Shown: positions 20,990 to 36,203 of the stretch, piece by piece
Layout of the letters: each line of letters begins with the position of its first letter
Numbering within the stretch: the first letter of the stretch is position 1
Assembly: GCA_001940925.1 (NCBI GenBank)
Contig: MSGZ01000009.1
Coordinates: 175,908 to 239,907 of the forward strand
Reading direction: 5' to 3'
Length of the DNA stretch: 64,000 nucleotides
Source: Ruminococcus sp. Phil11
GTDB taxonomy: Bacteria; Bacillota; Clostridia; Oscillospirales; Ruminococcaceae
Made by a program: the position numbers and the translations under genes
The notes under the pieces: model-generated
Database searches by the model: none
Told to the model about the DNA's origin: nothing
The model's input: only the letters and a program-made list of their open reading frames with translations

Positions 20990-21062
20990 AAGAATTACAG
21001 GATGGAGAGCGGTACGCTGTTTTGGTGTATACGCGGTGTTTTTAAGAGGGAGGGTCATTACA

Positions 21063-23822
21063 ATGAGGAGAAAACTGATTGCCGGATTCTGTGCGGCCGG
21101 GACGGCACTGTCCGCGGCGGGCGGAGTGCTGCCTATGACGGATTATGCACGGATCCCGGCGCAGGCAGCCGTGCTCGGAGACATTGACGGGAACGGCACG
21201 CGCGATGCAGCCGATGCCGCTGCACTGACCGGCTGGCTTCTGACGAAGCAGAGCAGCGCAATGGGTGCCGACGTCAACAATGACGGCACGGTCAATGCCA
21301 AAGACCTGACAGTGCTGAAACGGCAGCTGCTTTCCGGCGCAGCAGCACCGGCAGGCGCATCGGGGCTGGTCATCAGCGAGGTCTGCTCCACGAATAAGAA
21401 ATCGCTGAAGGCTGCTGACGGCAGCTCGCCGGACTGGATCGAGCTTTACAATGCCGGAACCGCTGCCTGCGATCTCGGCGGCGTCGGCGTTTCCGACGGT
21501 GACAAAAACCGCTACAAGTTCACGTTCCCGCAGGGGACGAAGCTTGCTGCAGGGGAATATCTCATCATTTTCTGCGACGATACCGATGTGACAACCGGAG
21601 AGCTCCATGCCGCGTTCAAGATCAGCGCAGCAGGGGAAACGATCTACCTGACCGCAGCGGACGGCACGGAGCTTGACCGCGCCGCACTGCCGGAGCTTGA
21701 TCCGGATGTGACCTACGGCAGAACGGCGGACGGCAGCTTTGCGCTGCTGAACGCGACGCCGGGGAAATCCAATGATACGGCAGACCCGGTCTACCGCGTG
21801 GAGAAGCCTGTGTTTTCCTCTGAGGGCGGATTCTACGATTCCGCGTTTGATCTGACGCTTTCGGGCGCAGACGGCTGCACGGTGCTGTATACGCTGGACG
21901 GCTCCGACCCGCGGACTTCTTCCTCGGCGAAGCAGTATCAGAGCGGCATCAGCATCCGCAACAATACAAGTGACCAGAACAAACTGGCTTCCGTCCGCGA
22001 GATCTCCCTGCGCGGATACACCCCGCCGGATTACAATGTAGATAAGGGTATGATTGTCCGGGCGGTCTGCAGGGACAGAAGCGGTCAGTTCAGTGCCGTT
22101 GCCACCAACAGCTATTTTGTCGGCAAGACCGCGTCCTATTACAAGGACATGAAGGTGCTGTCGATCTCCACGGACAGCAGCAATTTCTTTGATAAGGAAA
22201 CCGGCATTTACATGATCGGCAATCAGTATGACCGCTGGAAGAACAGCGGAAACTTTGATCCGAAGCTGGATCTCGGCAGCTGCGACAATCCCACGAATTA
22301 CAACATGGAGGGCAAGGAATGGGAGCGTCCCTGCAATATTCAGGTGTTTGAGCAGGGCAAGCTGAAATATACCGAGGATGTCGGCGTGCGCATTTCCGGT
22401 AACTGGACGACCGCTTTTCCGCAGAAAAGCATGACGTTCTACGCGCGGAAGGAGTACGGCTCCAACAAAATGCAGCATGATTTCTTCGAGGGCGGCGCGC
22501 GCGATACCGAGGGCACCAAGATCAAGGAGTACAAAAAGGTCACGATTCGCAACGGCGGCAACGGCTATGACAACTGCCGCTTCCGCGATGACCTGAACCA
22601 GTCGCTCGCAGAGGGACTTGCACTCGGAAAGCAGGCCAAGCAGGACTATATCGTCTTTCTGGACGGCGAGTTCTGGGGTGCCTATTCGATGCAGGAAAAG
22701 CTCGACGAGAATTATGTCGAGTCGCATTATCATGTCGCTGCGGACAATGTGAGTATGCTGAAGAACGGCAAGGAATTTGATGGCGTTGATGCCGTGTATC
22801 AGGATTACAAGCAGTTCTGGACTTGGGCAATGTCGGCGGATATGGCCAATGCAGAGAATTACAAGCGCGTCTGCGATACGATCGATGTACCGGGCTTTAT
22901 GGACTTTGTTGCGTTTGAAAGCTACATCGTCAACTGGGACTGTATGCTGAACAACAACAACTGGCTGATCTGGCGCGCAGATGAACCGGATGCTTCCAAT
23001 CCCTATGCAGACGGCAAATGGCGGTTCCTGCTTTTTGATACGGAGTATTCCTCCGGTTATGACGGTCAGTGCCCGCTCAATAAGGATTATTTCAAGCACA
23101 TGGACCGCTCCGGCAAGCAGACCAGCATCGCGTCGCTGTTCTTTAAGCTGATGAACAACGCATCGTTCAAGGAGCAGTTCTTCACGCGGTATCAGACGGT
23201 CATGCAGGAGAACTTCGATGCCGCAAAGGTCAGCGAAAAGATCGACGCTTATGCCGCAGCAACGAAGGACGCAGCAAATGACACCTACCGCAGATTCAGC
23301 ATCGGCGCGCTGTTTGACAGCAATGTCCGCATCATCCGGAACTTCTATAACAAGCGCGGGAAATATGCGATGCATCACCTGAATCTGCTGTACGGCATTC
23401 AGGATAACTGGCAGGATGACCCGAACATGATCGACCAGTTCGGCTGGAGCATCTGGATGAATGACGGTGCCGGCTCGATCGAATACAACGACGACGGCAG
23501 CATCACGGTTGTCGTTACACGCACAGGCCAGTATGCACAGGTCAGCAGCAGCACAGTTTCGCTGCAGGCCGGCAAGACCTACCGCATGACCTATAAGGTC
23601 AGCACGGACCGGAATATCAATACATACGCGATGTTCCAGCAGGGGACAGGTGAGTATAAGAGCTATTATTATCAGGATTATACCTTCACCCCGAATGTGC
23701 AGACTTACACTGATACGGTCACAATGACGCAGTCAGATGAGAATGTCAAATTCCTGATCGGTCTGGACAAGGGTACCGGTACCTACCGCATTTCCGATTT
23801 CTCGATGATCTGCCTGAACTGA
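21063..23822 (+). CDS. Secreted dockerin - lamin-tail - CotH kinase-like protein with C-terminal carbohydrate-binding-like module
   Basis: The protein has 919 residues. A signal peptide (KLIAGFCAAGTALSAAGG) is followed by an N-terminal dockerin at about residues 36-95 (DIDGNGTRDAAD and DVNNDGTVNAKD). A lamin-tail domain comes next (LVISEVCSTNKKS, DWIELYNAG), then a chitobiase-C-like module (CTVLYTLDGSDPR). The CotH domain has PCNIQVFEQG, GVRISGNWTTAFPQKSM, NCRFRDDLNQSLAEG and the downstream FLLFDTEYSSG. The last 150 residues resemble a CBM4/16-like jelly roll. CotH proteins are atypical protein kinases in spore coats, and cellulosomal CotH proteins occur in Ruminococcus, where their substrates are unknown. 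ATG 21063 is preferred to 21036 because GGGAGGG precedes it and the signal peptide starts there. Confidence 0.9.
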   Translation: MRRKLIAGFCAAGTALSAAGGVLPMTDYARIPAQAAVLGDIDGNGTRDAADAAALTGWLLTKQSSAMGADVNNDGTVNAKDLTVLKRQLLSGAAAPAGASGLVISEVCSTNKKSLKAADGSSPDWIELYNAGTAACDLGGVGVSDGDKNRYKFTFPQGTKLAAGEYLIIFCDDTDVTTGELHAAFKISAAGETIYLTAADGTELDRAALPELDPDVTYGRTADGSFALLNATPGKSNDTADPVYRVEKPVFSSEGGFYDSAFDLTLSGADGCTVLYTLDGSDPRTSSSAKQYQSGISIRNNTSDQNKLASVREISLRGYTPPDYNVDKGMIVRAVCRDRSGQFSAVATNSYFVGKTASYYKDMKVLSISTDSSNFFDKETGIYMIGNQYDRWKNSGNFDPKLDLGSCDNPTNYNMEGKEWERPCNIQVFEQGKLKYTEDVGVRISGNWTTAFPQKSMTFYARKEYGSNKMQHDFFEGGARDTEGTKIKEYKKVTIRNGGNGYDNCRFRDDLNQSLAEGLALGKQAKQDYIVFLDGEFWGAYSMQEKLDENYVESHYHVAADNVSMLKNGKEFDGVDAVYQDYKQFWTWAMSADMANAENYKRVCDTIDVPGFMDFVAFESYIVNWDCMLNNNNWLIWRADEPDASNPYADGKWRFLLFDTEYSSGYDGQCPLNKDYFKHMDRSGKQTSIASLFFKLMNNASFKEQFFTRYQTVMQENFDAAKVSEKIDAYAAATKDAANDTYRRFSIGALFDSNVRIIRNFYNKRGKYAMHHLNLLYGIQDNWQDDPNMIDQFGWSIWMNDGAGSIEYNDDGSITVVVTRTGQYAQVSSSTVSLQAGKTYRMTYKVSTDRNINTYAMFQQGTGEYKSYYYQDYTFTPNVQTYTDTVTMTQSDENVKFLIGLDKGTGTYRISDFSMICLN

Positions 23823-24642: not shown

Positions 24643-26877
24643 TTATCTGAAATAGTTGAGCTTCTTTTCAATGCGGTCCATGACAAATGCAACGACTGCA
24701 TTGAATATGTAGTAGAATACGCCCGCGATGAACAGCGGCAGGATCGTTGCCTGTGCCGCTGCGACCTGCTTGGCCAGCGTGAACATCTCCGTATAGGAGA
24801 TCGCGAATGCCAGCGAGGTGTCCTTGACCAGCGTGATGACCTCATTCGTCACCGAGGGAATGATGTTCTTGACCATCTGCGGGAAAACGATCTTAAAGAA
24901 CTTCTGCGTTCTGGAGTAGCCGAGGATCTCGCAGGCCTCGTGCTGTCCGACCGGAACGGCCTGAATGCCCGAGCGGTAGATCTCCGCAAAATATGCGGCA
25001 TAATTCAGGGTAAAACCAATGATGACCGCATAGAAGCGGTAAGCAGCCGAGGTCTGGATGCCGAAGAGGTAATACGGGCCGAAGAATACGACCAGAAGCT
25101 GCAGCATCAGCGGCGTACCGCGGACGATCGAGATATACACCGTGACAAGCCAGCTCAGCGGCTTGAATCTGCTCATTTTACCTGCCGCAATCAGCAGACC
25201 GAGCGGCAGCGCAAAGAGCAGCGTCAGAAAGAAGATCGCGAGGGATGCGCCGACGCCTTTCAGCAGCTGCATACAGATGCTGCCGAGCTTTTCGCCGAAG
25301 GAAACGGTCTCGGCGGCGGTTTCAGCCTTGTTTTCCGTTTCGCGGCTCAGGCAGACGCTGTCAGAAAGCCCCCATTCATCTGCAATGCGGGCAAAGCTGC
25401 CGTCATCGAGCATTTCAAACAGTGTCTCCTGTACGGAATCGCGCAGGGCCGTGTTGCCTTTCAGGAAGCCAATGCCGTACTGCTCCGAGGAAACATGCTC
25501 GGAGAGCATGACGAACTGGTCGCCGCGCTTTTCGATCTCGTAATTGGCCACACCGATATCCATGCAGACCGCATCCACGGCACCGCTTTCGAGATTGAGG
25601 AATGCCGTGTTGTAATCGCCGACCTGCTGCAGATCGCGGAAGGATGCGGCAAGTGCGATATTGGATTCCTCTGCATCGTCGCCGGTAAAGGCGGCCAGTG
25701 CGGAGCTGTCTGCCTGAACAGCCACGACCTTTCCGGCCAGATCGTTCAGTGCGGTGATATCGGAGCCCTTCTTCACGACGACGACCTGCGAGTTATCGAC
25801 ATACGGCACAGACCATGTGTAATCGTTTTCGCGTCCGTTGATCGTAAAGCCGTTCCAGATGCAGTCGATCGCGCCGGTTTTCAGCTCCATATCCTTGGAG
25901 TTCCAGTCGATCGGCTGCTTGACAAGGGTCCAGCCGCGGCGGCTGCATACCTCCTCCGCCAATGAGAGGTCAAAGCCGACATATTCACCTGTCTCGTTCT
26001 GATAGCCGTAAGGCGGGAATTCCGCGTCAAATCCGACGGTAAAGGTCTCTCTGCCGTCCTCCTGCTGCGCATCGGCAGGTGCAGTCAGGCAGACACAGTC
26101 GGAGAGCTCCCATTCCTTTGCGATGCGGTCAAAGGTGCCGTCCGCCGCCATTTCAAAGAGGGTCTCCTGTACCTCGTCGCGCAGTTCCGTGTTGCCCTTC
26201 AGAAAGCCGACGCCGTATTCCTCAGAGGAAATATGCTCATCGAGCATCGTGAATTTCCCGCTGCGTGCGGCGATCTCATAATTCGCGACGCCGATATCCA
26301 TGCAGATCACATCGACCGCGCCGCTTTCAAGATTCATGAACGCGCTGTTATAATCGCCGACCTGCCGGAGATCCTTGAATGTCTCTGCGAGTTCTTTGTT
26401 CGCTTCCTCTGCATCGTCGCCGGTAAAGGCAGCGAGCGCGGAGCTGTCCGCCTGCACGGCAACGATCTTGCCGGAGAGGTCGGAGAGTGCCCGGATATCC
26501 GAATCGCTCCGGACGACCGCGACCTGCGAATTATCGACATAGGGCACTGTCCATGTGTAATCGTTTTCGCGGCCGTTGATCGTAAAGCCGTTCCAGATAC
26601 AGTCGATTGCACCGGTTTTCAGCTCCATATCCTTGGAGTTCCAGTCGATCGGTACCTTTTTCAGCTCCCAGCCGCGGCGTTCGCAGACCTCCTCTGCGAG
26701 CGAGAGGTCAAAGCCGACGTATTCACCGGCTTCATTCTGATAGCCGTAAGGCGGAAATTCCGCATCAAATCCGACTGTGAAGGCCGTGCGGTCTGCAGAG
26801 ACCGGCACAGCGGACAGCACACCGGTCAGCAGCAGCGATGCCGCGCTGAGCAGTGCAGCTATGCAGCGGTTTTTCAT
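24643..26877 (-). CDS. ABC amino-acid transporter: two tandem receptor domains fused to the permease
   Basis: This 744-residue protein has a signal sequence (CIAALLSAASLLLTGVLSAV), then two nearly identical periplasmic-binding domains of family 3 (residues 31-276 and 277-522). A permease domain of about 220 residues follows, with the EAA loop (GQHEACEILGYSRTQKFFKIVFPQ). Each receptor copy has TVGFDAEFPPYGYQNE, WNSKDMELKTGAIDCIWNGF and FMNLESGAVD or a close variant. The layout is that of GlnP proteins, in which receptor domains are tethered to the channel. Both copies keep the same ligand-facing residues, so they probably bind the same amino acid. The gene lies 48 bases after the PurA-like gene without a terminator, so it may belong to that operon. 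Confidence 0.92.
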   Translation of the reverse strand: MKNRCIAALLSAASLLLTGVLSAVPVSADRTAFTVGFDAEFPPYGYQNEAGEYVGFDLSLAEEVCERRGWELKKVPIDWNSKDMELKTGAIDCIWNGFTINGRENDYTWTVPYVDNSQVAVVRSDSDIRALSDLSGKIVAVQADSSALAAFTGDDAEEANKELAETFKDLRQVGDYNSAFMNLESGAVDVICMDIGVANYEIAARSGKFTMLDEHISSEEYGVGFLKGNTELRDEVQETLFEMAADGTFDRIAKEWELSDCVCLTAPADAQQEDGRETFTVGFDAEFPPYGYQNETGEYVGFDLSLAEEVCSRRGWTLVKQPIDWNSKDMELKTGAIDCIWNGFTINGRENDYTWSVPYVDNSQVVVVKKGSDITALNDLAGKVVAVQADSSALAAFTGDDAEESNIALAASFRDLQQVGDYNTAFLNLESGAVDAVCMDIGVANYEIEKRGDQFVMLSEHVSSEQYGIGFLKGNTALRDSVQETLFEMLDDGSFARIADEWGLSDSVCLSRETENKAETAAETVSFGEKLGSICMQLLKGVGASLAIFFLTLLFALPLGLLIAAGKMSRFKPLSWLVTVYISIVRGTPLMLQLLVVFFGPYYLFGIQTSAAYRFYAVIIGFTLNYAAYFAEIYRSGIQAVPVGQHEACEILGYSRTQKFFKIVFPQMVKNIIPSVTNEVITLVKDTSLAFAISYTEMFTLAKQVAAAQATILPLFIAGVFYYIFNAVVAFVMDRIEKKLNYFR
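25312..26787 (-). repeat. Tandem in-frame duplication of the receptor domain (two units of about 738 bp)
   Basis: The coding sequence for residues 31-276 is repeated as residues 277-522 with a period of 246 codons. Long DNA stretches are nearly identical, for example around AATCGTTTTCGCG and the WNSKDMELKTG coding region. That points to a fairly recent duplication or to ongoing gene conversion. Confidence 0.85.
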
Positions 26878-26925: not shown

Positions 26926-28137
26926 TCAGAGACGGAAAACGCGGACATCCTCTGCATAAAGGCTGGCAGAGCAGTACAGCGTTCCGAACAGTCCGTTCAG
27001 TCCGGCGCAGTAATCCGTGACGGGGATCCTGCCGTCTGTCGTTATGATGCATCCGTCCGATTCGTTCAGATGCGTGACAAACAGCGATACGTCTGCCGGA
27101 AGCTTGCTTTCTGCCAGATCGGCGCGGACAGCCTCGGCAAATTCTTCGGGACTGCCGTGCGGCGCGGAGCGGATCGTGCCCTGCCATTCGTTCTGTACAT
27201 TTGTGCGGTCACTGCTGCCGAATGTGTACGGCTGCTCCGGGTTTTCATGCGGGAGCGGCCCCGCCCCGTGCCGCGTGACATACGAACGCGTCATGTAAAC
27301 GATCTCCGTTTCCGGCTGCGCAGAACTGCCGCCGTACAGTTCCCGCAGGATGCGTGCCGGCTCTGTCAGTCCCGTGCGCGAGGCCGTCAGGTGCGGAGCG
27401 AATTTCGTATACATTTCGTCGAGCAGCAGCCCCTGCGCCCCCTCAAACAGAATATCGTCGTATTCCCGTAAAAATGAAGTCTCGCGGAGCGTAACGGATT
27501 CGGCATTTCTGGCCATGACCTCCGCCGCATTGCGGAGCACAATGTCGCTTTGCAGCAACTCACCGTATTCTCCTGCGTTTTGCAGGTCGATGTTCAGTGT
27601 ATGGAGACGGAACGGCAGATAATCCGTTTGAATCTCACGCATGTTCCGGTAGAGCTTTTCTGCGTCTGAACCGGCAATTTCGCCGAGATGCAGCGGATAG
27701 CGTCCGGAGCGCACGACTGCTTCATTGATTCCCATTCCGCAGGAGCCGTGGCGTTCCTTGCCGCGGGACGTTTCCAGCAGCATATTCAGCAGAATATCAC
27801 CGATATATGTGCAGCGGCAATCAGGAGACGCGTAAAGCTGCGGGTCGGTTCCGGAAAGAGCGCGGAACCGTTCCGTTTCCTCTGAAAGTTTATAGAGATC
27901 GGGCAGAAAGCTGTCCGCCCAGTATGTATCTGCTTCGCGGAACGAACCGGATGATAACTGAGAAAACACGAACCGTCTGTCCGGAAAATCAACGGTATGC
28001 CCGGCCTGTGCACCGCCGTTATGCCGCACGCAGACCGCCGTTTTTCCGGCGTTTCTGCTTCTCAGTGCAAAATGATCTGTGGCAAGTCCTTTTCCCTCGT
28101 CCCCGAAATTCTTGCCGATTACGATCGTAACAGACAC
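26926..28137 (-). CDS. Divergent adenylosuccinate synthetase-like enzyme (PurA superfamily)
   Basis: The protein has 403 residues. It keeps the GTP and catalytic motifs of PurA: FGDEGKG with its catalytic Asp and Lys near residue 12, GAQAGHT with catalytic His, FEGAQGLLLD and TRHGAGPLPHE. It departs where PurA binds IMP: the TGRGIGP-Y-DK-xxR stretch is replaced by GSCGMGINEAVVRSGR, and the length is about 30 residues below the usual 430. It probably performs GTP-dependent activation and amino-acid ligation on a purine-like or other 6-oxo substrate, perhaps not IMP. The GTG start at 28137 has no ribosome binding site and lies nine bases after the VWA gene, suggesting coupled translation. This context makes a housekeeping purine role unlikely. 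Confidence 0.75.
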   Translation of the reverse strand: MSVTIVIGKNFGDEGKGLATDHFALRSRNAGKTAVCVRHNGGAQAGHTVDFPDRRFVFSQLSSGSFREADTYWADSFLPDLYKLSEETERFRALSGTDPQLYASPDCRCTYIGDILLNMLLETSRGKERHGSCGMGINEAVVRSGRYPLHLGEIAGSDAEKLYRNMREIQTDYLPFRLHTLNIDLQNAGEYGELLQSDIVLRNAAEVMARNAESVTLRETSFLREYDDILFEGAQGLLLDEMYTKFAPHLTASRTGLTEPARILRELYGGSSAQPETEIVYMTRSYVTRHGAGPLPHENPEQPYTFGSSDRTNVQNEWQGTIRSAPHGSPEEFAEAVRADLAESKLPADVSLFVTHLNESDGCIITTDGRIPVTDYCAGLNGLFGTLYCSASLYAEDVRVFRL

Positions 28138-28146
28138 GGTGCGCGG

Positions 28147-29025
28147 TTACAGGCTGATCGTCGAAAGTGCTTTTGCGGCGACAGTTTTTGCCGGGTCTGT
28201 CCACTGGGAAAGTGTATCCGCCTTGGACATGCCGCCTGCGACCTGCATCAAAGAGATCATGACCTCTGCAAGGTATTCAATGTTTGCCGGCTCAATCACG
28301 GCATTGCGCCCCGGCAGGAGCGGCTCCCATGTCCGCAGCGAAGAAACGGTGCGGCTGCCGGTGACAATGTGGAATACCTCGTATTTCTCGCTGACCAGTG
28401 CGGCGAGCTTTTTCGTTTTGTAGTCTTTCGCGTTTTCGTCGCCGAACACGAACGCGATCTCTTTTTCTGACAGAATGTTCACATTCCCGTCGTCACCGAC
28501 CTCATCACCGATGCAGAAGATGAACCCTTTTTTTCCGCGCTTCTCAAAGCAGTCCGTGGAGGTGTGCTTCAGCGCAAAATACCAGACAAGTGCGTCATAG
28601 CTGTAGCGGTTGCCGCCGCCGAGCACGAAGTCCAGCAGCTGCTCGACGACGCGGATATCCGCCTCAAACTGCGTGACCTGCATCGGGATCGAGCTGTTCG
28701 GTGCCGTAAAGGCCGCGCACATCAGGTGCGGGTCGGTGACAGGCCGCTTTTCAAGGATCATGGTCGCGGTCTTGTTGAGTGAGTTCTTTGCGATCTCCGC
28801 AGCCAGATAGCCCATGGAGCCGGTCGAATCGAAGCCGATGATGATCGGCGTGGATGCCGGCGAGTCCTCGCTGTCTCTGGATTCGCGGACGGAAATGAAC
28901 CGCGGCTGATACTTTTCCTGTGCGCTGTTACCGCTGAAAATGTCATTCGCAGTCGAACTGCTGCTGATGCCCTTGCTGCTTTTCAGACGGCTCCAGTCTG
29001 CTGCATTGTAGCTTCCGTGTCCCAT
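28147..29025 (-). CDS. VWA-like metal-binding protein, first paralogue
   Basis: This 292-residue cytoplasmic protein starts MGHGSYNAADWSRLKSS. It has a von Willebrand factor A-like core: IIIGFDSTGSMGYLA resembles the MIDAS DxSxS site with Thr at the second position. Later come HLMCAAFTAPNSS and GFIFCIGDEVGDDG, where VWA domains have a second acidic loop. There is no signal peptide or membrane segment. It is a clear paralogue of the next gene upstream; both share the N-terminal YxAxDWxRL and the FDxTxSMG and TQFExDIR motifs. AAGGAGG precedes the start and the PurA-like gene follows nine bases after the stop. Adhesion-like partner binding or scaffolding of the neighbouring enzyme is a guess. 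Confidence 0.7.
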   Translation of the reverse strand: MGHGSYNAADWSRLKSSKGISSSSTANDIFSGNSAQEKYQPRFISVRESRDSEDSPASTPIIIGFDSTGSMGYLAAEIAKNSLNKTATMILEKRPVTDPHLMCAAFTAPNSSIPMQVTQFEADIRVVEQLLDFVLGGGNRYSYDALVWYFALKHTSTDCFEKRGKKGFIFCIGDEVGDDGNVNILSEKEIAFVFGDENAKDYKTKKLAALVSEKYEVFHIVTGSRTVSSLRTWEPLLPGRNAVIEPANIEYLAEVMISLMQVAGGMSKADTLSQWTDPAKTVAAKALSTISL

Positions 29026-29037
29026 GTTGGTACCTCC

Positions 29038-29937
29038 TTAAAAAGAAATAATATTCTGATCGGCCATGCGGATCGGTGCAAGTGCGTCCGCGATGATCTC
29101 TGCGGCACTCTGGTCAACGGCCCGCAGTGCTTCGTTCTGCGTTTTGCCCTCTGCCGCGGAGATCAGTGCAAAGATCAGCTCCGCAAGGCAGGCGATATTC
29201 TTTTTGCCGATGACCGCAGCTCTGCCGGGCATCAGCGCGTTCCATTCCGCGGAGATCCGGTCGTCTCCGGGCATTCCCTTGTCAATGGAAATGTGGAATA
29301 CATGGTATTTTTCCTCTGCGGCAGCGAGCAGCTCGGAATCGGACAGATCGTATTCCGCGGTGTCGCCGAATACGCGCGCGATCTCATTCCGCGTGAGCAG
29401 CCTGTGGCAGCGGTCGTCACCGATCGTGATGAGGATGCCTTTCTGCCTGCGTTTCTCCCAGCAGTCTGTCCGGGTGCGGTGTGCCGCGAAATACCATGCA
29501 AGATGATAGGATTCGCCGCCGTTTCCGCCGCCGCCGCCCTCAAGATAGAGCGCGGTCAGCTGTTTGATGATGCGGATATCGCTCTCGAACTGCGTTACCT
29601 GAAAAGGCACTTTGTCTGTTTTGCTGTCGCCGATCGCGCAGCAGAGCACCTGCGGACAGGAGATCGGCTTGTGCTCGTAGAGATACATGACCGCACGGTT
29701 CAGCGCACGGAGTGCCAATTCCTCCGCAAGAAATCCCATGGACGTTGTGACGTCAAAGCCGATGATGACCGGCGTGGACTGCGGGGAATCGGGATTGTCG
29801 CGCGCTTCGCGGAATACGTTTTTCAGCGAGGCGTTCTGCGTGCTGCTGCCTTTGAAGATTTGCTCTGCTTTCTTTTCGGTGCCGAAACTGCTTCTCAGCC
29901 TGTTCCAGTCACTCGCCGTATAGCTTCCCTGTCCCAT
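29038..29937 (-). CDS. VWA-like metal-binding protein, second paralogue
   Basis: This 299-residue protein is built like its neighbour: MGQGSYTASDWNRLRSS, then VIIGFDVTTSMGFLAEELA, QVTQFESDIRIIKQL and ILITIGDDRCHRLL. The MIDAS-like site again reads DxTxS. A Gly-rich loop (EGGGGGNGGES) replaces the shorter GGGN of the other copy. The two differ enough to suggest a heteromer. Its start is two bases after the stop of the zinc-ribbon gene, and the first paralogue starts 12 bases after its own stop. No secretion or membrane signal is visible, so it acts in the cytoplasm. I know of no assigned function for this subfamily. Confidence 0.7.
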   Translation of the reverse strand: MGQGSYTASDWNRLRSSFGTEKKAEQIFKGSSTQNASLKNVFREARDNPDSPQSTPVIIGFDVTTSMGFLAEELALRALNRAVMYLYEHKPISCPQVLCCAIGDSKTDKVPFQVTQFESDIRIIKQLTALYLEGGGGGNGGESYHLAWYFAAHRTRTDCWEKRRQKGILITIGDDRCHRLLTRNEIARVFGDTAEYDLSDSELLAAAEEKYHVFHISIDKGMPGDDRISAEWNALMPGRAAVIGKKNIACLAELIFALISAAEGKTQNEALRAVDQSAAEIIADALAPIRMADQNIISF

Positions 29938-29939
29938 AA

Positions 29940-30908
29940 TTATGTACCCTTGCCGTAGATCTGCTCATCGTCGGTATCCATCGTGATGAACTTGCGTTCA
30001 CCGTAGGAGCGGATCAGCACATCGTCCCATTTTGCAAAATCGTCGTAGGCATTGCTTTCCGGCTCCGATTTCAGGAAATCCGCAAACGGCTTCGGGATAT
30101 CGTCTGTTTCCTTTGCCGCTGCCGCATTCGGGAATCCGAGCACCTGTGCGGCAGTTTCACGCAGCGCAGTCAGATTGCTGCGTGTGGTCAGCGCTTTGCC
30201 GTTGACGGCCGTATGATTCCGCACCGCATTCCACCAGCCGCCGTACAGGCTTGCCTGATGATCGTAGGGGTCAATATAGATCGTGTCAATGCCGAAATCC
30301 GGGTGCACGATGCTGCTGTATTCCAGCACACAGCAGAGATTTTCCATACGCCCGATCAGCCATGCCGTATGCCGGCCGGAGAGCTTTCCGAACAGCCGGA
30401 GCGGATATTCGTCCTCGCTTTTTTTGACGGCAAGCAGCACGGAATCATCGGTGAGGGAGAACCCGCCGCTGATGACCGGGAAAAAACGGGAGAGATTTCT
30501 GACATCGGCGGACGGATAGTCGAGCATGGAAACGGCCCTGCGGTATTTGTCCGCATTTTCCGTCTGACCGGGCTCAAACCGGAAGATAACAGACTGTCTT
30601 GCGGTATAGGCGGTCATGACGCGGTCGCTGTACCGGTGCAGGCTCGCGACATTGATCTGTCTGCCGTCGCTGCAGGAAAAGGTCTCCTGTTCGGCCTGCT
30701 TCCAGAGCTCGTCTGCACGGCGTCTGCGCTCCTGACCGTCCGCGGAAAGCCGGAAAAAGCTTTTCATGCGTGCGTAGAATTCGCGGTAGTAGTCCGTGTC
30801 CTTGTGATCGAGCACATAATCCGTGCGGCAGTACGGACAACGCGCTGTCGTGCCGGACGGGTCGATCAGCATCGGACCGCCGCAGTTTCTGCAGTTCAGG
30901 TTCTTCAT
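29940..30908 (-). CDS. Zinc-ribbon protein of unknown function
   Basis: The protein has 322 residues. The first 35 form a zinc ribbon with two CxxC pairs (LNCRNCGGPML and ARCPYCRTDY). A charged helical linker follows (QERRRRADELWKQAEQE), then a globular domain not recognised by family (VIFRFEPGQTENADKYRRAV, WWNAVRNHTAVNG). It lacks membrane segments and known catalytic motifs. It is the first gene of the operon, behind a consensus promoter (30944-30972), with GGGAGGG before its ATG. Such ribbons often mediate nucleic-acid or protein contacts, so it may be the adaptor or sensor of the VWA/PurA-like module. The call stops at the ribbon. Confidence 0.65.
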   Translation of the reverse strand: MKNLNCRNCGGPMLIDPSGTTARCPYCRTDYVLDHKDTDYYREFYARMKSFFRLSADGQERRRRADELWKQAEQETFSCSDGRQINVASLHRYSDRVMTAYTARQSVIFRFEPGQTENADKYRRAVSMLDYPSADVRNLSRFFPVISGGFSLTDDSVLLAVKKSEDEYPLRLFGKLSGRHTAWLIGRMENLCCVLEYSSIVHPDFGIDTIYIDPYDHQASLYGGWWNAVRNHTAVNGKALTTRSNLTALRETAAQVLGFPNAAAAKETDDIPKPFADFLKSEPESNAYDDFAKWDDVLIRSYGERKFITMDTDDEQIYGKGT

Positions 30909-30943
30909 ATTCTGCCCTCCCTTGATCGCATTTGTATGATACT

Positions 30944-30972
30944 ATCATAGCACAGAACGGGCATGAAGTCAA
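30944..30972 (-). promoter_or_regulatory. Promoter of the zinc-ribbon/VWA/PurA-like operon
   Basis: On the minus strand TTGACT (30967-30972) and TATGAT (30944-30949) are separated by 17 bases, about 36 bases before the start codon. It is one of the closest matches to the vegetative consensus in the window, suggesting constitutive expression. Confidence 0.75.
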
Positions 30973-31100
30973 GGCATGATAATAATAATTGTATACAATT
31001 TCGTGCGGATCGTGTTTGATTCCGGCTGCCTTTTTTGCCGCCGCAGACTGTACAGTTTTGCATATCTGACAAAGCAGCAGCCTTTTTGCAGGATTGTTCA

Positions 31101-31129
31101 TTGACGCAGCCGGAAATCTATAGTACAAT
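31101..31129 (+). promoter_or_regulatory. Promoter of the dockerin metallopeptidase gene
   Basis: TTGACG (31101-31106) and TACAAT (31124-31129) are separated by 17 bases, with a leader of about 40 bases to the start at 31176. Confidence 0.7.
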
Positions 31130-31175
31130 GAAAGCAGATTTCCGCAGGACTGCGGAGAAAAGGGGAGGGGTTACG

Positions 31176-33824
31176 ATGAACAGAAAAACAGCGGCATTGC
31201 TGACGGCTGCGGCAGCAGCTTCTGCGATGCTTGATCTGCTGCCGGAACATGCGCTTGCAGCAGAGGAATACCGCATCCGCGACAAATGGGGCTACTGTCA
31301 GACGGCGCATTATGCGGAATCGGAGCATTTTGTCATTTTCTACGGGAACAATGACACGACCGGAAAGGTCAATGATGCGTTTCTCAAACGCAATCTGGCC
31401 GACTACGAAAAGCTTTGGAAATGCTACGGTGAGCTTCTCGGCATGACGGATATGAATGTCGATATCTACGGCAAGAGCGCGCAGAAATACAAAACGAATG
31501 TCTATCTGACCTTTACCGGATTAAGTCAGTATCCCGAGGGCTGGGCGTTCATGAGCTCGGAGGACGGCTACGGCATCGAGATCATCAGTCCCGAGGCGAT
31601 GCTCGATGACCTGACGATCGCGCATGAGTTCGGGCATGTTGTGACGATGCAGCAGAAGGCATGGGTCGATCAGGAGATTACCGGTGCATGGTGGGAGCCT
31701 CTTGCAAACTGGTTCCGCGAAATGTATCTCAGCAGCAGCTATTATACCGGTACAGTCAAAACCTGCTGGTTTGAGCCGTATATCCGGAATCTGAACATGG
31801 CCTATCCGCACGGCCGCGATTACTACGAGGTCTGGCCGTTTCTTGTGTATCTCGAAACGAATCCGGACAATCTGCCGGGTCTCGGACAGTTCGCGGTCAA
31901 GCGGCTGATCTCCGAGGCGAAGCCGGGGGAGTATCCGTTTGATACGATCACGCGGCTGTTCGGGACGGATGTGCAGACCGTGTTCGGGCATTATGCCAAG
32001 CGCATGGCGACCTTTGATCTCGGCGCGAGAGAAGCCTACCGCGCAGAATTTGCGCAGAAGCTCAAGGATGCACCCTATTATTGGAACCTGTTTTATACGG
32101 TTCCGGAGGACAGCGGCAGCGGCTGGCTGCAGGCACCGCAGTGGGAGGCACCGATGCAGGGCGGCATCAATGTGATTCCGCTTCAGATCACGGGCGGAGA
32201 GATCACCGCAGAGCTGCGCGGCCTTTCGGATGATGCGAATGCCGCATGGCAGGCATGTATTGTTACGGAGGATGCGTCCGGTAATGTGCGGTATTCCGAT
32301 CTGTTCGGCAGCGGGGAGACGGCAGCGGTCTCTGCTGCGGGCATGACAAAGGCGTATCTGACCGTATCCGCTATGCCGAAAACGCTTTATCCGGTCAACG
32401 CGTTCCATAAGGAAAAGGATTCGCCCTACCGCACCGGCGACGAGCGCAGACGGTATCCCTATGAGATCCGGCTGACCGGCGCGTCGGTGCAGCAGTCCGG
32501 CGGGTATCAGAAGGGAAACGGCCATATCCATGCAAACGGCGGCGGCTGGGTCGCGGATACTGCAAAGGTTTCCGATTCTGCTTATGTCGGCCCGGAGGCA
32601 ATGGTGCTCGGCAATGCGAAGGTTTCCGGAGAAGCAAGGATCACGGATCATGCAGTGGTCGCGGGTGATACCGTTGTGCAGGATCATGCGGTCATTTCCG
32701 GATATGCCTGCGTGCACGGCGGCGGCTGGGTCTATGCGGACGGCGGCTGGAAATCGGGCAGCGTGACGGTCAGCGGCAATGCTGTCGTGGGCGGGAGTGC
32801 GGTCATCAGCGGTATGTGCAGCATTACCGGGAATGCGTCTGTCATGCAGAAGGCGCATGTCTGTGATGCGGTCACACTGAAAGACCGTGCCTGCGCAAAG
32901 GGCACTTCGTATCTGACCGGCAGCGGCGTTTATTCCGGGCAGGCTGTTGCGGACGGCGATTATGCAAATGAAGAACAGAAAAACAGCGGTGTCGGGTTCG
33001 GCTGGCTGGATGAGGGCGGCTGGCATCAGACGGCGGAAGGGCATCTTGCTTCTTATGATTTTGCTGACCGGACAGGCTTCTGGGGCGCAGATGCCTATAC
33101 CGCGACCGGCATCCGTCTGAACGGCGCAGAGTGGGCTGCAGAACGCACCTCTGCAAAGGGCGTCGTCAGCTTTGACGGCGACGACGGCTGCCTGCAGCTT
33201 GACAGCGGCATCCTGATGACCGATGATCTTCAGATCAGTCTCGGGGTGCTCTGGAAGGGCGGACAGAACGGGCAGGAGCTTCTGCATTTCGGTGACAGTA
33301 CGGCTTACATCCGTCTGACGCCTGCTGATGCGGACGGACAGACCCGTCTGACCGTTACAGACGGCAGGAATCCGATATCCCTGAAAGCACCTGCACTGAC
33401 GAGGGGTGAATGGCACCGCGTCACAATCCGCATGTTTGACGGGACAGCATCTTTGCTGATCGACGGTCAGCAGGCAGACCGCAAAGCCTGCAGCGTCACG
33501 CCGCTGGATGTGATGTGTGCCGCAGAATCAGATCTTGCCGTGGTCGGAAAGGGGTTCCGCGGGGCACTGGATGATATCCGGTTCAGCTATCAGGAGACTG
33601 CGGAGCCGCAGATCCGGTACACCGGCAGCGAACCGGCAGACGATTCTCCGCTGCGCGGCGATGTCAATGCGGACGGAAAGGTTTCCGTCGCGGATGCGGT
33701 CATGCTCTGCCGGTATCTGACCGGGGAAGGCAGCGTCACGGACTGGCAGGCGGGCGATCTGAATGCAGACAGCAGGCTCGGCGCGGACGATCTGACGCTG
33801 CTGAAACGGCTGCTGCTCGGATAA
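31176..33824 (+). CDS. Secreted dockerin protein with HExxH-type peptidase-like domain, beta-helix and LamG-like domain
   Basis: The product has 882 residues with a signal peptide (AALLTAAAAASAMLDLLP). Residues 30-330 form a domain with an HEFGH zinc-binding motif at 150-154 and a following ENGSEXX-like acidic segment, resembling DUF6055-type putative metallopeptidases. From about 450 to 600 there are short repeats of the left-handed beta-helix kind (DTAKVSDSAYVGPEAMVLGN, AVISGYACVHGG). A LamG-like jelly roll follows (ISLGVLWKGGQNGQELLHFG, WHRVTIRMFDGTASLLIDG). The C-terminus is a dockerin (DVNADGKVSVAD and DLNADSRLGADD). It could cut cell-wall or plant glycoproteins within the cellulosome. 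ATG 31176 follows GGGGAGGGG. Confidence 0.82.
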   Translation: MNRKTAALLTAAAAASAMLDLLPEHALAAEEYRIRDKWGYCQTAHYAESEHFVIFYGNNDTTGKVNDAFLKRNLADYEKLWKCYGELLGMTDMNVDIYGKSAQKYKTNVYLTFTGLSQYPEGWAFMSSEDGYGIEIISPEAMLDDLTIAHEFGHVVTMQQKAWVDQEITGAWWEPLANWFREMYLSSSYYTGTVKTCWFEPYIRNLNMAYPHGRDYYEVWPFLVYLETNPDNLPGLGQFAVKRLISEAKPGEYPFDTITRLFGTDVQTVFGHYAKRMATFDLGAREAYRAEFAQKLKDAPYYWNLFYTVPEDSGSGWLQAPQWEAPMQGGINVIPLQITGGEITAELRGLSDDANAAWQACIVTEDASGNVRYSDLFGSGETAAVSAAGMTKAYLTVSAMPKTLYPVNAFHKEKDSPYRTGDERRRYPYEIRLTGASVQQSGGYQKGNGHIHANGGGWVADTAKVSDSAYVGPEAMVLGNAKVSGEARITDHAVVAGDTVVQDHAVISGYACVHGGGWVYADGGWKSGSVTVSGNAVVGGSAVISGMCSITGNASVMQKAHVCDAVTLKDRACAKGTSYLTGSGVYSGQAVADGDYANEEQKNSGVGFGWLDEGGWHQTAEGHLASYDFADRTGFWGADAYTATGIRLNGAEWAAERTSAKGVVSFDGDDGCLQLDSGILMTDDLQISLGVLWKGGQNGQELLHFGDSTAYIRLTPADADGQTRLTVTDGRNPISLKAPALTRGEWHRVTIRMFDGTASLLIDGQQADRKACSVTPLDVMCAAESDLAVVGKGFRGALDDIRFSYQETAEPQIRYTGSEPADDSPLRGDVNADGKVSVADAVMLCRYLTGEGSVTDWQAGDLNADSRLGADDLTLLKRLLLG

Positions 33825-33863: not shown

Positions 33864-34009
33864 TTATGCTTTGTTTTGCGCGAATACTTTTTCTTATCCG
33901 TATCCGCAATGCGCGTCACAGGCGAAAGCGTCCATGTGCCGCGCTTCTTTTTGTCCTGCTCGCGCTTCTGCTTTTTGCTCATTTTCTCATAGGGTACAAA
34001 ATCCTTCAT
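33864..34009 (-). pseudogene. Small basic protein gene coupled to rtcB, apparent 3' frameshift
   Basis: The reading frame starts at ATG 34009, overlapping the rtcB stop (ATGA). It encodes a lysine/arginine-rich protein: KDFVPYEKMSKKQKREQ, KKKRGTWTLSPVTRIADT, KKYSRK. I recall similar basic proteins of about 50-60 residues in many Firmicutes, ending shortly after the YxRK motif. Here the frame reads on through the terminator hairpin and into the antisense of the dockerin gene until 33590. That is not credible. Adding one A to the A4 run at 33874-33877 ends the protein at TAA 33864 after YSRKNKA, just before the terminator. Either the gene has lost a base or the sequence has. Confidence 0.6.
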
Positions 34010-35214
34010 TCCTCTGCACCTGCCTTAAAGTTATAAATCGGCCGGATGATCTCATTGATCTCGACGGTATCGCCGATGCATCCGGTGATCGCTTCCATCG
34101 GCTTATAGGCCATCGGGCATTCGTCCAGCGTCCCGCTCCCGACGGATGTGGTATAGATGCCGGCCATCTGCTTTTTGAATTCGGAGACCGTGAACGAAGC
34201 CTTTGCGTCCGAACGGGACATCAGTCTGCCTGCGCCGTGCGGAGCGGACTGGTTCCAGTCGTCATTGCCCTTTCCCGTGCAGATCAGGCTGCCGTCTCGC
34301 ATATTCATCGGGATCAGCAGCTTTTCGCCGGCACGCGCCGAGACTGCGCCCTTCCGCAGGATCATGTGCTCCGTGTCGATATAATTGTGAATTGTTGTGA
34401 ACTGCTCCGCAATATGCAGTCCCATGCCGCGGATCAGTTCGTCGATCATGGCTTTCCGGTTAAGCATTGCAAATTCCTGCGTCAGCTTCATGTCGTGGAT
34501 ATACTGCTCAAACAGTCTGCCCGTTGTATAGGCAAGATGCTTCGGCACATCGGTACGCTTTTCGGCTTTCAGCTTCTTCAGAGCCTTCTGGATTTGCGTT
34601 TCCCTGCCTTGTGCTTTTAATGCAGCAATCAGCGCATCGGCCTCGTCCTTTGAGACAGCATTCAAATGCCGGTACGCTTCCTCCTGATAGTATTTTGCGA
34701 CCTCGACGCCGAGATGCCGTGAGCCGGAGTGAATGACCAGATAAATACTGCCGTCCCCGCTCTGATCGGCCTCGATGAAATGATTGCCGCCGCCGAGTGT
34801 TCCGATGCTCAGCATCATGCGCGGAACGTGTATTTTGTCGGCGCAGTAAAGCAGTTCCGGTGCAAAGCGCGATGCAAACCGGTGCGGTGTCTCCCTGACG
34901 GAAAACCCGGACGGAATGCTCCGGTAGATCAGCTTGTCGAGCTTCTGTAGCTCGATATGCTTTTCTTTGAGCCGGACAGTCTCCATGCCGCAGCCGATAT
35001 CGACACCGACGAGATTCGGGATCGCGGTGTCAGTGACGGTCATGGTCGTGCCGATCGTGCAGCCTGCACCGGCGTGGACATCCGGCATGATGCGGATCTT
35101 TGCACCGGCACTCACCGGCTGATTGCACAGGGACAGGATCTGCGCGACGGCGCTTTCCTCTGCGATATCCGCAAAAACCTTTGCAGAAGCGTATTTTCCC
35201 TGAATTTCAAACAT
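34006..35214 (-). CDS. rtcB: RNA-splicing ligase RtcB
   Basis: This 402-residue ligase has the RtcB signatures: MPDVHAGAGCTIGTTM, VGVDIGCGM with the metal-binding Asp and Cys, GTLGGGNHFIE with the Mn-binding Asn-His, HSGSRHLG, and the C-terminal APHGAGRLMSR with the His that is guanylylated. RtcB joins 2',3'-cyclic phosphate ends to 5'-OH ends of RNA using GTP and manganese, in tRNA or stress-induced RNA repair. The start at 35214 follows AAAGGA; the longer upstream frame crosses a terminator and is rejected. Transcription must pass the terminator at 35240-35271, so expression is probably conditional. A small basic protein is coupled downstream. No Rtc regulator or release factor H is adjacent. 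Confidence 0.95.
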   Translation of the reverse strand: MFEIQGKYASAKVFADIAEESAVAQILSLCNQPVSAGAKIRIMPDVHAGAGCTIGTTMTVTDTAIPNLVGVDIGCGMETVRLKEKHIELQKLDKLIYRSIPSGFSVRETPHRFASRFAPELLYCADKIHVPRMMLSIGTLGGGNHFIEADQSGDGSIYLVIHSGSRHLGVEVAKYYQEEAYRHLNAVSKDEADALIAALKAQGRETQIQKALKKLKAEKRTDVPKHLAYTTGRLFEQYIHDMKLTQEFAMLNRKAMIDELIRGMGLHIAEQFTTIHNYIDTEHMILRKGAVSARAGEKLLIPMNMRDGSLICTGKGNDDWNQSAPHGAGRLMSRSDAKASFTVSEFKKQMAGIYTTSVGSGTLDECPMAYKPMEAITGCIGDTVEINEIIRPIYNFKAGAEE

Positions 35215-35239
35215 AAATTGTCCTTTCCGGAGTGCCCGC

Positions 35240-35271
35240 AAAAAAAAGCATCCCTGCCGGTGCAGAGATGC
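35240..35271 (-). terminator. Rho-independent terminator in the rtcB leader
   Basis: On the minus strand GCATCTCTGC and GCAGGGATGC pair around a four-base loop and are followed by eight T residues. The element stands only 26 bases before the rtcB start and after the promoter at 35411-35439. It either ends a short upstream transcript or acts as an attenuator for rtcB. Confidence 0.85.
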
Positions 35272-35282
35272 TTTGACGATCG

Positions 35283-35377
35283 TCATGAATACACAGTCAG
35301 GCCGTGTATGCGGGCAAACTCCTCATGCAGTTCGGTTGTTGATGTTGATATGGAATTGTCAGATATTGATATTTCAT
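35283..35377 (-). CDS. Possible small ORF between the rtcB promoter and leader terminator
   Basis: A short ORF lies between promoter and terminator, with AGGTG seven bases before ATG 35377. As written it encodes 26 residues (MKYQYLTIPYQHQQ...) ending at 35297. One extra A after ATGAA gives a more protein-like 31-residue reading, MKISISDNSIS then TTELHEEFARIHGLTVYS, ending at 35283 just before the terminator. Either could be a leader peptide or an independent small protein. I do not recognise it. The choice of frame cannot be settled from this sequence alone. Confidence 0.3.
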
Positions 35378-35410
35378 GGGGTTCACCTGCCTTTCTCAGA
35401 ATTTGAGTTT

Positions 35411-35439
35411 ATTATATGCGCTTTCCGCTGATTTGTCAA
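35411..35439 (-). promoter_or_regulatory. Consensus promoter of the rtcB leader unit
   Basis: On the minus strand a perfect TTGACA (35434-35439) and perfect TATAAT (35411-35416) are separated by 17 bases. It is the strongest promoter by sequence in the window. The leader to rtcB is about 190 bases and contains the small ORF and the terminator. Confidence 0.85.
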
Positions 35440-35486
35440 GCGGTATTCCTGAATTGTAACCGTTTTGTAGCGGGTCGGTATTTAGC

Positions 35487-36203
35487 TTATTTTATCTCCG
35501 GCGTAAAATCAATATACGGATAATCTCCGATCTGCTGTGCAATGACCGTTCGTGCAAGATTGAACCAGCGGCTGCATTCGTCCAGAATGATCGCGTCGCC
35601 GGAGGCAACGAGCGGCTTTGTTTTCAGGAGCGCATCGACCGGATTCTCGATCAGCACATCGAGCTCAAAGGAGATGTGCTCTGCCAGTTCAAAGATGCGC
35701 TGTTTCAGTCTGCCGGAATTGGAGACCGGCTGATCGAGACAGATCACGGCCTTTGCGGTCCGGCTCGTTTCCAGTGTGCTGAGCAGCGCGGTGATCGCGG
35801 AATCGGTCTGCGGGATCAGCCGGTAGGTGCCGTGCAGTCCCGCGAGGTCGCGGACGGTGCCGTCCATGCAGTGAAACAGCATCGACTGGGAATAAGCGAT
35901 CTCCAGTCCGATGATGACATTGAATCCGTCGATCCAGAGCGTTTCGCCGGCAATATTGGTCACCTCGCGGCTTTTGCGTGCGTGTACTGCCGCTTCCTGA
36001 GAGAGCGTGCGCGCCAGTGCCAGACGCTGGCGTTCGGAGAACTGATACCGGTCACCGACAAAGCGCGTGACCGGCGTGACAGGATAGCCGCGGTCCAGCA
36101 GATAGCAGACCTCCTCTGCGGCCTTTTTCAGCTTCGGGAGACTTTCTGCGCTGAAATCCCGCGCATCTGACGGCAGAAAGCCGCGCTTTGCCTGAACTGA
36201 CAT
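35487..36203 (-). CDS. DUF434/DUF5616 domain protein
   Basis: The 238-residue protein matches the DUF434 family by memory of its pattern. The N-terminal helical DUF434 part (AEEVCYLLDRGYPVTPVTRFVGDRYQF) is followed by a C-terminal nuclease-like fold (LWIDGFNVIIGLEIA, DSAITALLSTLE, KAVICLDQPVSNSGRLK, VASGDAIILDECSRWFNLA). The acidic residues in WIDGFNV, CLDQPVS and SGDAIILDE could line a metal site as in PIN-like folds; this is inference. It is transcribed away from the two-component system at 36412 and towards rtcB. Separate promoters make an RNA-metabolism link only suggestive. The start follows a weak AGGTGA. Confidence 0.75.
   Translation of the reverse strand: MSVQAKRGFLPSDARDFSAESLPKLKKAAEEVCYLLDRGYPVTPVTRFVGDRYQFSERQRLALARTLSQEAAVHARKSREVTNIAGETLWIDGFNVIIGLEIAYSQSMLFHCMDGTVRDLAGLHGTYRLIPQTDSAITALLSTLETSRTAKAVICLDQPVSNSGRLKQRIFELAEHISFELDVLIENPVDALLKTKPLVASGDAIILDECSRWFNLARTVIAQQIGDYPYIDFTPEIK

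What the first reader, a model, noticed from the sequence alone, without database searches (positions are those of the whole stretch)
26926..30908. Compact operon of zinc-ribbon protein, two VWA-like paralogues and an altered PurA-like ligase
Seen: four genes with gaps of 2, 12 and 9 bases behind a near-consensus promoter (30944-30972). All are cytoplasmic. The VWA pair shares DxTxS-type MIDAS variants but has diverged, suggesting a heteromer. The PurA-like enzyme keeps catalytic Asp, Lys, His and the FEGAQG motif but replaces the IMP-loop TGRGIGP stretch with GSCGMGINEA. Known: PurA joins Asp to IMP using GTP; VWA domains assemble protein complexes; zinc ribbons contact nucleic acids or proteins. 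Inference: a dedicated system that modifies a nucleotide-like or other substrate under VWA/ribbon control, perhaps in stress or conflict. I do not recognise it as a named defence or resistance system.
Basis: partly seen in the sequence, partly recalled or inferred. Interest (0 to 1): 0.85.

Follow-up and report, generated by a model that had tools for sequence, protein, structure and literature searches.

The report
NAD-linked pseudokinase, VWA-like, PurA-like module
The four genes are one version of a rare but very conserved gene trio, shared by bacteria and large phages, that often sits beside genes for NAD salvage and sensing; its altered purine-ligase probably does a still unknown chemical step there.

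Summary
In detail: four same-strand genes, gaps 2, 12, 9 bases, behind TTGACT-17-TATGAT. They are a local form of a conserved trio: a J-domain protein with a degenerate kinase half; a VWA-like protein; a separate branch of the PurA superfamily. With the VWA protein as bait, the PurA-like gene follows within 300 bp in 77 of 77 sampled bacterial loci with room, the pseudokinase precedes in 66 of 76. In the window a zinc ribbon replaces the J domain and the VWA gene is doubled. New: NAD/ADP-ribose genes flank many copies. NrtR is the top neighbour family (13 of 119 neighbour ORFs of 31 loci); some loci look like whole NAD-salvage islands. The window promoter carries a palindrome whose only other exact copy in the genome lies in an NrtR promoter. 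The enzyme keeps catalytic Asp, Lys, His and Gln but not the aspartate loop. Eight library searches found no description. Most likely an NAD-stress-responsive, GTP-dependent ligase module, substrate unknown. VWA fold, NrtR control and mechanism are unproven; 12 of 31 loci show no NAD gene.

The parts
29940..30908 (-). Gene 1, 322 aa: N-terminal zinc ribbon (CxxC..CxxC) plus C-terminal degenerate protein kinase; orthologues elsewhere carry a J domain instead of the ribbon
   Evidence: Pfam DnaJ at E<=0.1 in 43 of 49 members; DFG replaced by GGWW; HRD Asp in 12 of 115; model, pLDDT 88, kinase-like order of strands and helices, ribbon part below 50
29038..29937 (-). Gene 2, VWA-like protein 1, 299 aa, the copy that keeps the family motif GGGNxxESY
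   Evidence: (phrog_2971, 3.6e-41)
28147..29025 (-). Gene 3, VWA-like protein 2, 292 aa, diverged copy (GGGNRYSYD in place of GGGNxxESY)
   Evidence: (phrog_2971, 1.3e-25)
26926..28137 (-). Gene 4, PurA-like ligase, 403 aa, GTG start
   Evidence: PF00709 106.8 bits; far below PurA and PurZ cut-offs; phrog_1211 1.2e-43; model, mean pLDDT 93.0, pTM 0.93
30944..30972 (-). Promoter TTGACT-17-TATGAT
   Evidence: sequence
30935..30949 (-). 15-bp palindrome TATGATA-g-TATCATA over the -10 box, candidate NrtR operator
   Evidence: for; against:
30987..31000 (-). Second palindrome AATTGTATACAATT upstream of -35, function unknown
   Evidence: also in L029, not in L030 or L031

Best explanation
The operon is a conserved module that answers NAD+ breakdown or ADP-ribose build-up. 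Proposed working: when NAD+ is cleaved (by phage, toxin or defence NADases) ADP-ribose rises, an NrtR-type repressor lets go, and the module is made. The pseudokinase protein (J-domain, here zinc ribbon) and the VWA-like protein act together as scaffold or co-chaperone for the PurA-like enzyme, which uses GTP to activate an oxo or carboxyl group of a nucleotide in the NAD/ADP-ribose network and joins an amine to it. Shown by computation: the conserved trio, the pseudokinase and J-domain assignments, an altered but largely intact PurA-type active site, NAD neighbours at many loci, the shared palindrome. Inferred: regulation by NrtR, complex formation, GTP use, substrate and product.
For: Gene order fixed in bacteria and phages. 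NrtR_WHD and NUDIX the most frequent neighbour families, 13 each of 119 neighbour ORFs from 31 dereplicated loci; next 5 (AraR_C, related wing) and 3 (cytidylyltransferase-like). At least one of seven NAD families within the fetched 7 kb in 50 of 80 loci, 19 of 31 dereplicated. Clostridium L074 and L114: NrtR, PRPP-synthase-like, nicotinamidase-like, NAMPT, PARG-like, then the trio. Alphaproteobacterial MAGs L063 and L071: NadM-NUDIX right behind the trio, NadE-like genes on both, NAPRTase-like gene in L071. Phage loci: NAMPT and NADAR near the pair in L141 and L164, NAMPT in L147, NADAR in L026. Palindrome shared with an NrtR promoter; GATAnTATC upstream of the pseudokinase gene in 15 of 44 loci with NrtR nearby against 10 of 287 control genes. 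Catalytic residues kept in 149-151 of 151; confident fold model. Two inteins right behind the catalytic His, in a phage contig and a Paenibacillus.
Against: No NrtR gene in the window or near L029-L031. In 15 related genomes the exact palindrome has 18 sites (7 for the reversed pattern); 16 were examined: 1 precedes the module, 0 precede NrtR (125-126). Of four NrtR promoters read in three sister genomes only one has the 11-base core. The 15 of 44 fall in only 3 of 18 groups, and 4 of 22 loci without NrtR nearby have it too. 12 of 31 dereplicated loci show none of the NAD families searched. Viral neighbours are not dominated by NAD genes (NADAR 1, NAMPT_N 1, isochorismatase 1, metallophosphatase 3 of 119); NAPRTase in 15 of 49 viral records, 0 of the 4 phage-collection records among them. 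A PurB-like lyase was not searched for. VWA fold weak.
Confidence: 0.42

Rival explanations
1. A PurZ-like system: the enzyme makes a modified purine deoxynucleotide (from dGMP or similar) for phage DNA or as a second messenger.
For: Best PHROG is '2-aminooxy adenylosuccinate synthetase'; S-2L PurZ also lacks the PurA aspartate loop; phages carry it.
Against: PurZ model 30.6 bits against a cut-off of 300; catalytic Asp kept in 150 of 151 where S-2L PurZ has Ser (99); no DatZ or MazZ relative (phmmer, E<=1e-3) in 165 loci; many copies in bacterial genome contigs beside NAD genes.
Confidence: 0.1
2. A defence system: the trio makes a modified nucleotide or NAD analogue that harms or blocks an invading phage, and phages carry captured or counter versions.
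For: Rare, scattered distribution (1 of 398 Bacillota genomes, the window's own; 551 confirmed stretches in a collection of 84,980 species); phage and bacterial sequences interleave in the tree.
Against: PADLOC scan of 119 neighbours shows mostly generic kinase models and no defence island in the 25 families listed; no PADLOC match of the four proteins themselves beyond E 0.041; no effector domain recognised; kept intact in large phages.
Confidence: 0.2
3. An RNA-repair accessory: the enzyme adds or heals a nucleotide group on RNA ends or tRNA.
For: RtcB (34006-35286) lies one gene away from the window operon and also near L029; Thg1 in 2 and RlaP in 2 of 119 viral neighbours.
Against: RtcB is not near L030-L035; such genes are not among the 25 leading families of bacterial neighbours; the profile is PurA-like over most of the protein (112).
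Confidence: 0.08
4. An ordinary but diverged adenylosuccinate synthetase supplying AMP during NAD resynthesis, with assembly helpers.
For: Catalytic residues D13, K16, H41, Q224, T239 kept; PurA-like fold model (141).
Against: Loop with R303/R305 deleted in 151 of 151, K331 replaced in 147, N38 to Gln in 143 (99); host has canonical PurA; far below PurA cut-offs.
Confidence: 0.2

Closest known systems
Adenylosuccinate synthetase PurA (PF00709, NF002223, TIGR00184)
   Same: Same superfamily over most of its length; catalytic Asp, Lys, His, Gln kept (99)
   Different: Separate clade; aspartate loop deleted; N38, T129, V273 and K331 positions changed; fixed gene partners
PurZ (NF038379) of aminoadenine phages
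   Same: PurA paralogue carried by phages; lacks the same aspartate loop in S-2L (99)
   Different: Keeps the catalytic Asp; no DatZ or MazZ found (138); bacterial NAD context
Phage NAD+ salvage or reconstitution (NadV + NadM as in passages of PMC7139368; NARP1 as in the start of the abstract of PMC12774641, search listing; 'NARP2' recalled)
   Same: Shares neighbourhoods with NAMPT and NadM-NUDIX in some loci
   Different: The trio is not part of those pathways in the text seen; its step is unknown
NrtR regulons (recalled; PMC2330246 not held)
   Same: Nudix-type regulator near 49 of 80 sampled bacterial loci by a home-made profile
   Different: Trio as regulon member not found in the searches made (0 papers)
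Nudix-TF/ARG/vWA systems of PMC9503650 (passages seen)
   Same: Nudix regulator and a vWA gene in an ADP-ribose setting
   Different: Those centre on ADP-ribosylglycohydrolase; the text has 0 occurrences of 'PurA', 'succin' and 'adenylosuccinate'
Kinase-vWA-PP2C and MoxR-vWA systems (PMC7159879, passages)
   Same: Kinase-like plus vWA partners, some kinases inactive
   Different: 'PurA' does not occur in that text; here the pseudokinase bears a J domain and the third partner is a ligase

Membership tests
PurA | NCBIfam equivalog cut-off | tested here: not met
   88.3 bits vs 402 (NF002223), 68.8 vs 395.55 (TIGR00184)
PurA | Catalytic Asp13, Lys16, His41, Gln224 | tested here: met
   150, 150, 150, 151 of 151, window included
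PurA | Aspartate loop with Arg303/Arg305 (role recalled) | tested here: not met
   deleted in 151 of 151
PurA | Makes adenylosuccinate from IMP, Asp, GTP | not testable with these tools
   needs enzyme assay
PurZ | NCBIfam cut-off | tested here: not met
   30.6 vs 300 bits
PurZ | Catalytic Asp replaced (Ser in S-2L) | tested here: not met
   Asp in 150 of 151
PurZ | DatZ/MazZ neighbours | tested here: not met
   0 in 165 loci
Active protein kinase | HRD Asp and DFG motif | tested here: not met
   115 sequences: GGWW (100-109 of 115 per position) at the DFG site; HRD Asp in 12 of 115, the window (HPD) among them
J-domain protein (gene 1 family) | HPD motif and DnaJ similarity | tested here: met
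   H 95%, P 92%, D 95% of 115; Pfam DnaJ 43 of 49 at E<=0.1 (114); PDB DnaJ hits from 3.2e-7 (110)
J-domain protein (window member) | HPD motif | tested here: not met
   HKD after a zinc ribbon
VWA domain | MIDAS DxTxS plus later Asp; VWA fold | tested here: inconclusive
   D, T, S 99-100% of 168; fold hits weak (111, 119, 120); no structure model made
NrtR regulon member | NrtR operator in promoter | tested here: inconclusive
   for; 125, 126, 129 partly against
Phage NAD salvage (NadV/NadM) | NadV present with the module | tested here: not met
   NAPRTase in 15 of 49 viral records; no hit of the NadV or NadM searches in the window
Known defence systems (PADLOC) | Match to a defence model | tested here: not met
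   four proteins, one hit, E 0.041
Kinase-vWA-PP2C triad | Adjacent PP2C phosphatase | not tested
   no PP2C family among the 25 listed; no dedicated search

The most novel reading that the evidence does not exclude
A third functional branch of the adenylosuccinate synthetase superfamily, working with a J-domain pseudokinase and a VWA-like protein, carries out an unknown GTP-dependent ligation in NAD/ADP-ribose metabolism; bacteria switch it on when NAD+ is destroyed and large phages carry it to keep NAD+ up against NADase immunity, a pathway distinct from NARP1 and NARP2.
Probability: 0.3. Interest if true: 0.92.

Novelty: categorically new. Interest (0 to 1): 0.8.

Why it matters
A gene trio kept in fixed order under seven bacterial phylum labels (several from metagenome bins) and in large phages, often linked to NAD, whose enzyme is filed as an ordinary or base-modifying PurA, is a testable gap in NAD biology and phage-host conflict. 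It gives a PHROG of unknown function (phrog_2971) a context, and 189 mycobacteriophage records a hypothesis to test for their 'PurA-like' gene.

Tried and rejected
Whole-phylum survey (55): 1 of 398 Bacillota genomes, the window's own, so co-occurrence rests on the best 80 of 551 genome stretches and best 80 of 379 viral stretches (33-34), a sample leaning to sequences near the query. Neighbour statistics used 31 dereplicated bacterial loci (of 80) and 63 viral loci (of 80), ORFs of at least 120 and 100 aa, called by a simple script (57). My home-made NrtR profile also catches NadM-NUDIX (L063, L160, L169, L185; 138), so the Pfam count (61) is the one to trust. Viral neighbour scan (66) gave no leading NAD family. 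PADLOC neighbour scan (113): mostly generic kinase models. RtcB link dropped: absent from L030-L035 (25). Palindrome with 2 mismatches (88) is noise: 40 sites against 32 for the reversed control; the five further one-mismatch sites lie before or in genes that I did not recognise as NAD genes (91). In related genomes the exact palindrome is mostly elsewhere (125-126). Papers PMC7139368 and PMC12038007 concern ordinary PurA annotations (passages, 62-63). Loss of the aspartate loop as proof of another amino donor was given up because S-2L PurZ lacks it too (99). hhalign against four VWA proteins of the own genome gave at best P 0.0007 (120).
Full report
What is there. The host is most likely a Ruminococcus: contigs of the same lengths as those of its relatives carry Ruminococcus or Oscillospiraceae titles, and a dockerin gene flanks the operon; this is inference. 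A canonical PurA is encoded elsewhere (G000:C20).

The module. Among 100 related genomes (own included) seven others hold a close relative of the PurA-like protein: three same-genus genomes at 71-91% and four at 38-40%. Where fetched (L029-L035), the first three repeat the window's four genes; the other four have one VWA gene and a first protein alike only in its C-terminal part. Phages show the pair too: tblastn of 50,697 phage records found the PurA-like protein in 223 and the VWA protein in 206 records, with matching groups (189/188 Mycobacterium, 10/10 Rhizobium, 6/6 Vibrio, 1/1 Mycolicibacterium, 4/1 'Bacteriophage'). The further PurA hits (Listeria 5, Salmonella 2, Acinetobacter 2, Staphylococcus 2, Escherichia 1 and 1 more) have no VWA hit and were not examined; they may be true PurA or PurZ. 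In the five phage records read, the VWA gene lies upstream of the PurA-like gene, directly in four and with one small gene between in L028. Scans with the VWA alignment gave 551 confirmed stretches in genome contigs and 379 in viral contigs; the best 80 of each were kept. In the 80 bacterial loci the PurA-like gene follows within 300 bp on the same strand in 77 of 77 with room, and the first-gene homologue precedes within 300 bp in 66 of 76. In the 80 viral loci: PurA-like 75 of 78 (53 within 300 bp), first gene 44 of 76 (37 within 300 bp). The bait was the VWA protein alone, so the neighbours were not selected for.

The parts. Gene 1 is a pseudokinase. The family profile hits J-domain structures (from 3.2e-7) and protein kinases (best 6.5e-6) of the PDB; Pfam DnaJ matches 43 of 49 members at E<=0.1; HPD is 92-95% conserved in 115 sequences. 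The DFG site reads GGWW (100-109 of 115 per position); the catalytic-loop Asp is present in only 12 of 115, the window (HPD) among them. The model of the window protein (mean pLDDT 88) has the strand-rich then helix-rich order of a kinase; the ribbon part is low (below 50 in residues 1-13 and 26-37). In the window the J helix is replaced by a CxxC..CxxC ribbon and HPD reads HKD. Some phages lack this gene and carry a Met/Gly-rich protein upstream instead. Genes 2 and 3 are VWA-like by motif: DxTxS and a later GD are 99-100% conserved in 168 sequences, but fold searches are weak. Copy 2 reads GGGNRYSYD where the family has GGGNxxESY (92-100% per position). Gene 4: hhalign with a two-sequence PurA profile gives probability 99.9, E 4e-35; the model is confident (mean pLDDT 93.0, pTM 0.93); yet it scores far below PurA and PurZ cut-offs. 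In a quick IQ-TREE of 113 rows the 99 PurA-like rows form one side of a branch (SH-aLRT 95), 13 canonical PurA another (90), S-2L PurZ a very long branch; phage and bacterial rows interleave (starred branches force at least 7 and 6 changes); phylum labels include Bacillota, Pseudomonadota, Bdellovibrionota, Thermodesulfobacteriota, Nitrospirota, Spirochaetota and Melainabacteria. In 151 of 161 sequences (330-460 aa; literature numbering = position minus one) Asp13, Lys16 and His41 are kept in 150, Gln224 in 151, Thr239 in 149; Asn38 is Gln in 143, Thr129 is Cys in 125, Val273 is His in 151, Lys331 is Cys or His in 147, and the loop with Arg303/Arg305 is deleted in 151. The roles of these residues in PurA are recalled. 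S-2L PurZ also lacks that loop, so its loss does not exclude aspartate. Two members, viral contig L147 and Paenibacillus L095, hold intein sequences immediately behind the catalytic His; that inteins favour active sites of important proteins is recalled, and suggests a working enzyme.

The NAD link. Of 119 ORFs flanking the module in 31 dereplicated bacterial loci, 13 have the NrtR winged-helix domain and 13 a NUDIX domain; the next families have 5 (AraR_C, a related wing) and 3 (cytidylyltransferase-like), the rest 2 or 1. NrtR is found in 4 of 14 control genomes, so chance adjacency is small (my estimate: well under 1% per locus). By home-made searches for seven NAD families, 50 of 80 loci and 19 of 31 dereplicated hold at least one in the fetched stretch, 12 of 31 none. 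Islands: Clostridium L074 and L114 carry NrtR, PRPP-synthase-like, nicotinamidase-like, NAMPT and PARG-like genes right before the trio; alphaproteobacterial MAGs L063 and L071 carry NadM-NUDIX behind it and NadE-like genes, and L071 an NAPRTase-like gene. Pfam support: NAMPT in L114, NadM-NUDIX in L063, PARG in L064, CinA in L071 and isochorismatase in L063; the other names come from similarity to those or from my reading (NadD-like, NAD-kinase-like in L071 without a Pfam hit). In viral loci NAMPT and NADAR lie near the pair in L141 and L164, NAMPT in L147, and NADAR in phage L026. Of 49 records searched (45 of the 80 viral contigs, 4 of the 5 phage records) 15 hold a NAPRTase-family gene, including 7 of 7 longer than 250 kb and 0 of the 4 phage records. 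No control set of large phages without the module was run, so this is not shown to be enrichment. Among 119 neighbours of 63 viral loci no NAD family leads.

Regulation in the window. No NrtR gene is in the window, but the genome has two. The window promoter holds TATGATA-g-TATCATA over the -10 box; the NrtR gene on C30 has TATGATA-t-TATCATT over its own. The 13-base core occurs at exactly two places in the 3.7 Mb genome, these two; the reversed pattern at none. GATAnTATC lies within 200 bp upstream of the pseudokinase gene in 15 of 44 loci with NrtR nearby (3 of 18 groups at 80% identity) and 4 of 22 without (2 of 14 groups), against 10 of 287 and 1 of 139 control genes. Against: in 15 related genomes the core has 18 sites (reversed pattern 7); of 16 examined one, the sister genome G024's, precedes the module and none precede NrtR. 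Of six NrtR genes in three sister genomes four promoters were read: G024's has the 11-base core, the other three do not. I rate NrtR control of the window operon as likely, not shown.

Literature. Eight searches of the open library found no description of the trio; NrtR with 'adenylosuccinate synth' gives 0 papers. Passages seen: PMC9503650, PMC7824862, PMC7139368, PMC12038007, PMC7159879; no paper was read whole. Subscription papers and preprints are not covered.

Verdict. The module is real and conserved, and linked to NAD in a large share of the sampled bacterial loci. The chemistry is open: the most likely reading is a GTP-dependent ligation on an NAD-network nucleotide under ADP-ribose control (confidence 0.42 for the general reading). 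I call it categorically new because no named system seen here has these three parts; that rests on the searches named.

Noticed in passing
window 24643-26877: ABC-transporter protein with two tandem extracellular solute-binding domains (SBP_bac_3) fused to a permease domain.
   Followed up: no
window 34006-36203: RtcB RNA ligase and a DUF434/DUF5616 protein one gene beyond the operon; also near L029 but not L030-L035.
   Followed up: partly
window 21036-23822 and 31035-33824: The 31035 protein carries DUF6055, laminin-G-like and dockerin domains; the 21036 protein was not scanned and looks dockerin-bearing by eye.
   Followed up: no
L147:3403-5922 and L095:7980-10286: Intein sequences at the same place behind the catalytic His of the PurA-like enzyme, one with a LAGLIDADG domain.
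   Followed up: partly
L025:5702-6529, L026:6240-6953, L141:6151-6807, L147:1702-2388, L169:6252-6983: Met/Gly-rich phage protein of unknown function sits where the pseudokinase gene would be; no Pfam hit for L169's.
   Followed up: partly
L066, L069, L070: DUF4291 gene between NrtR and the trio in Lachnospiraceae.
   Followed up: no
window 30987-31000: Perfect 14-bp palindrome AATTGTATACAATT upstream of the -35 box, also in L029, not in L030 or L031.
   Followed up: no
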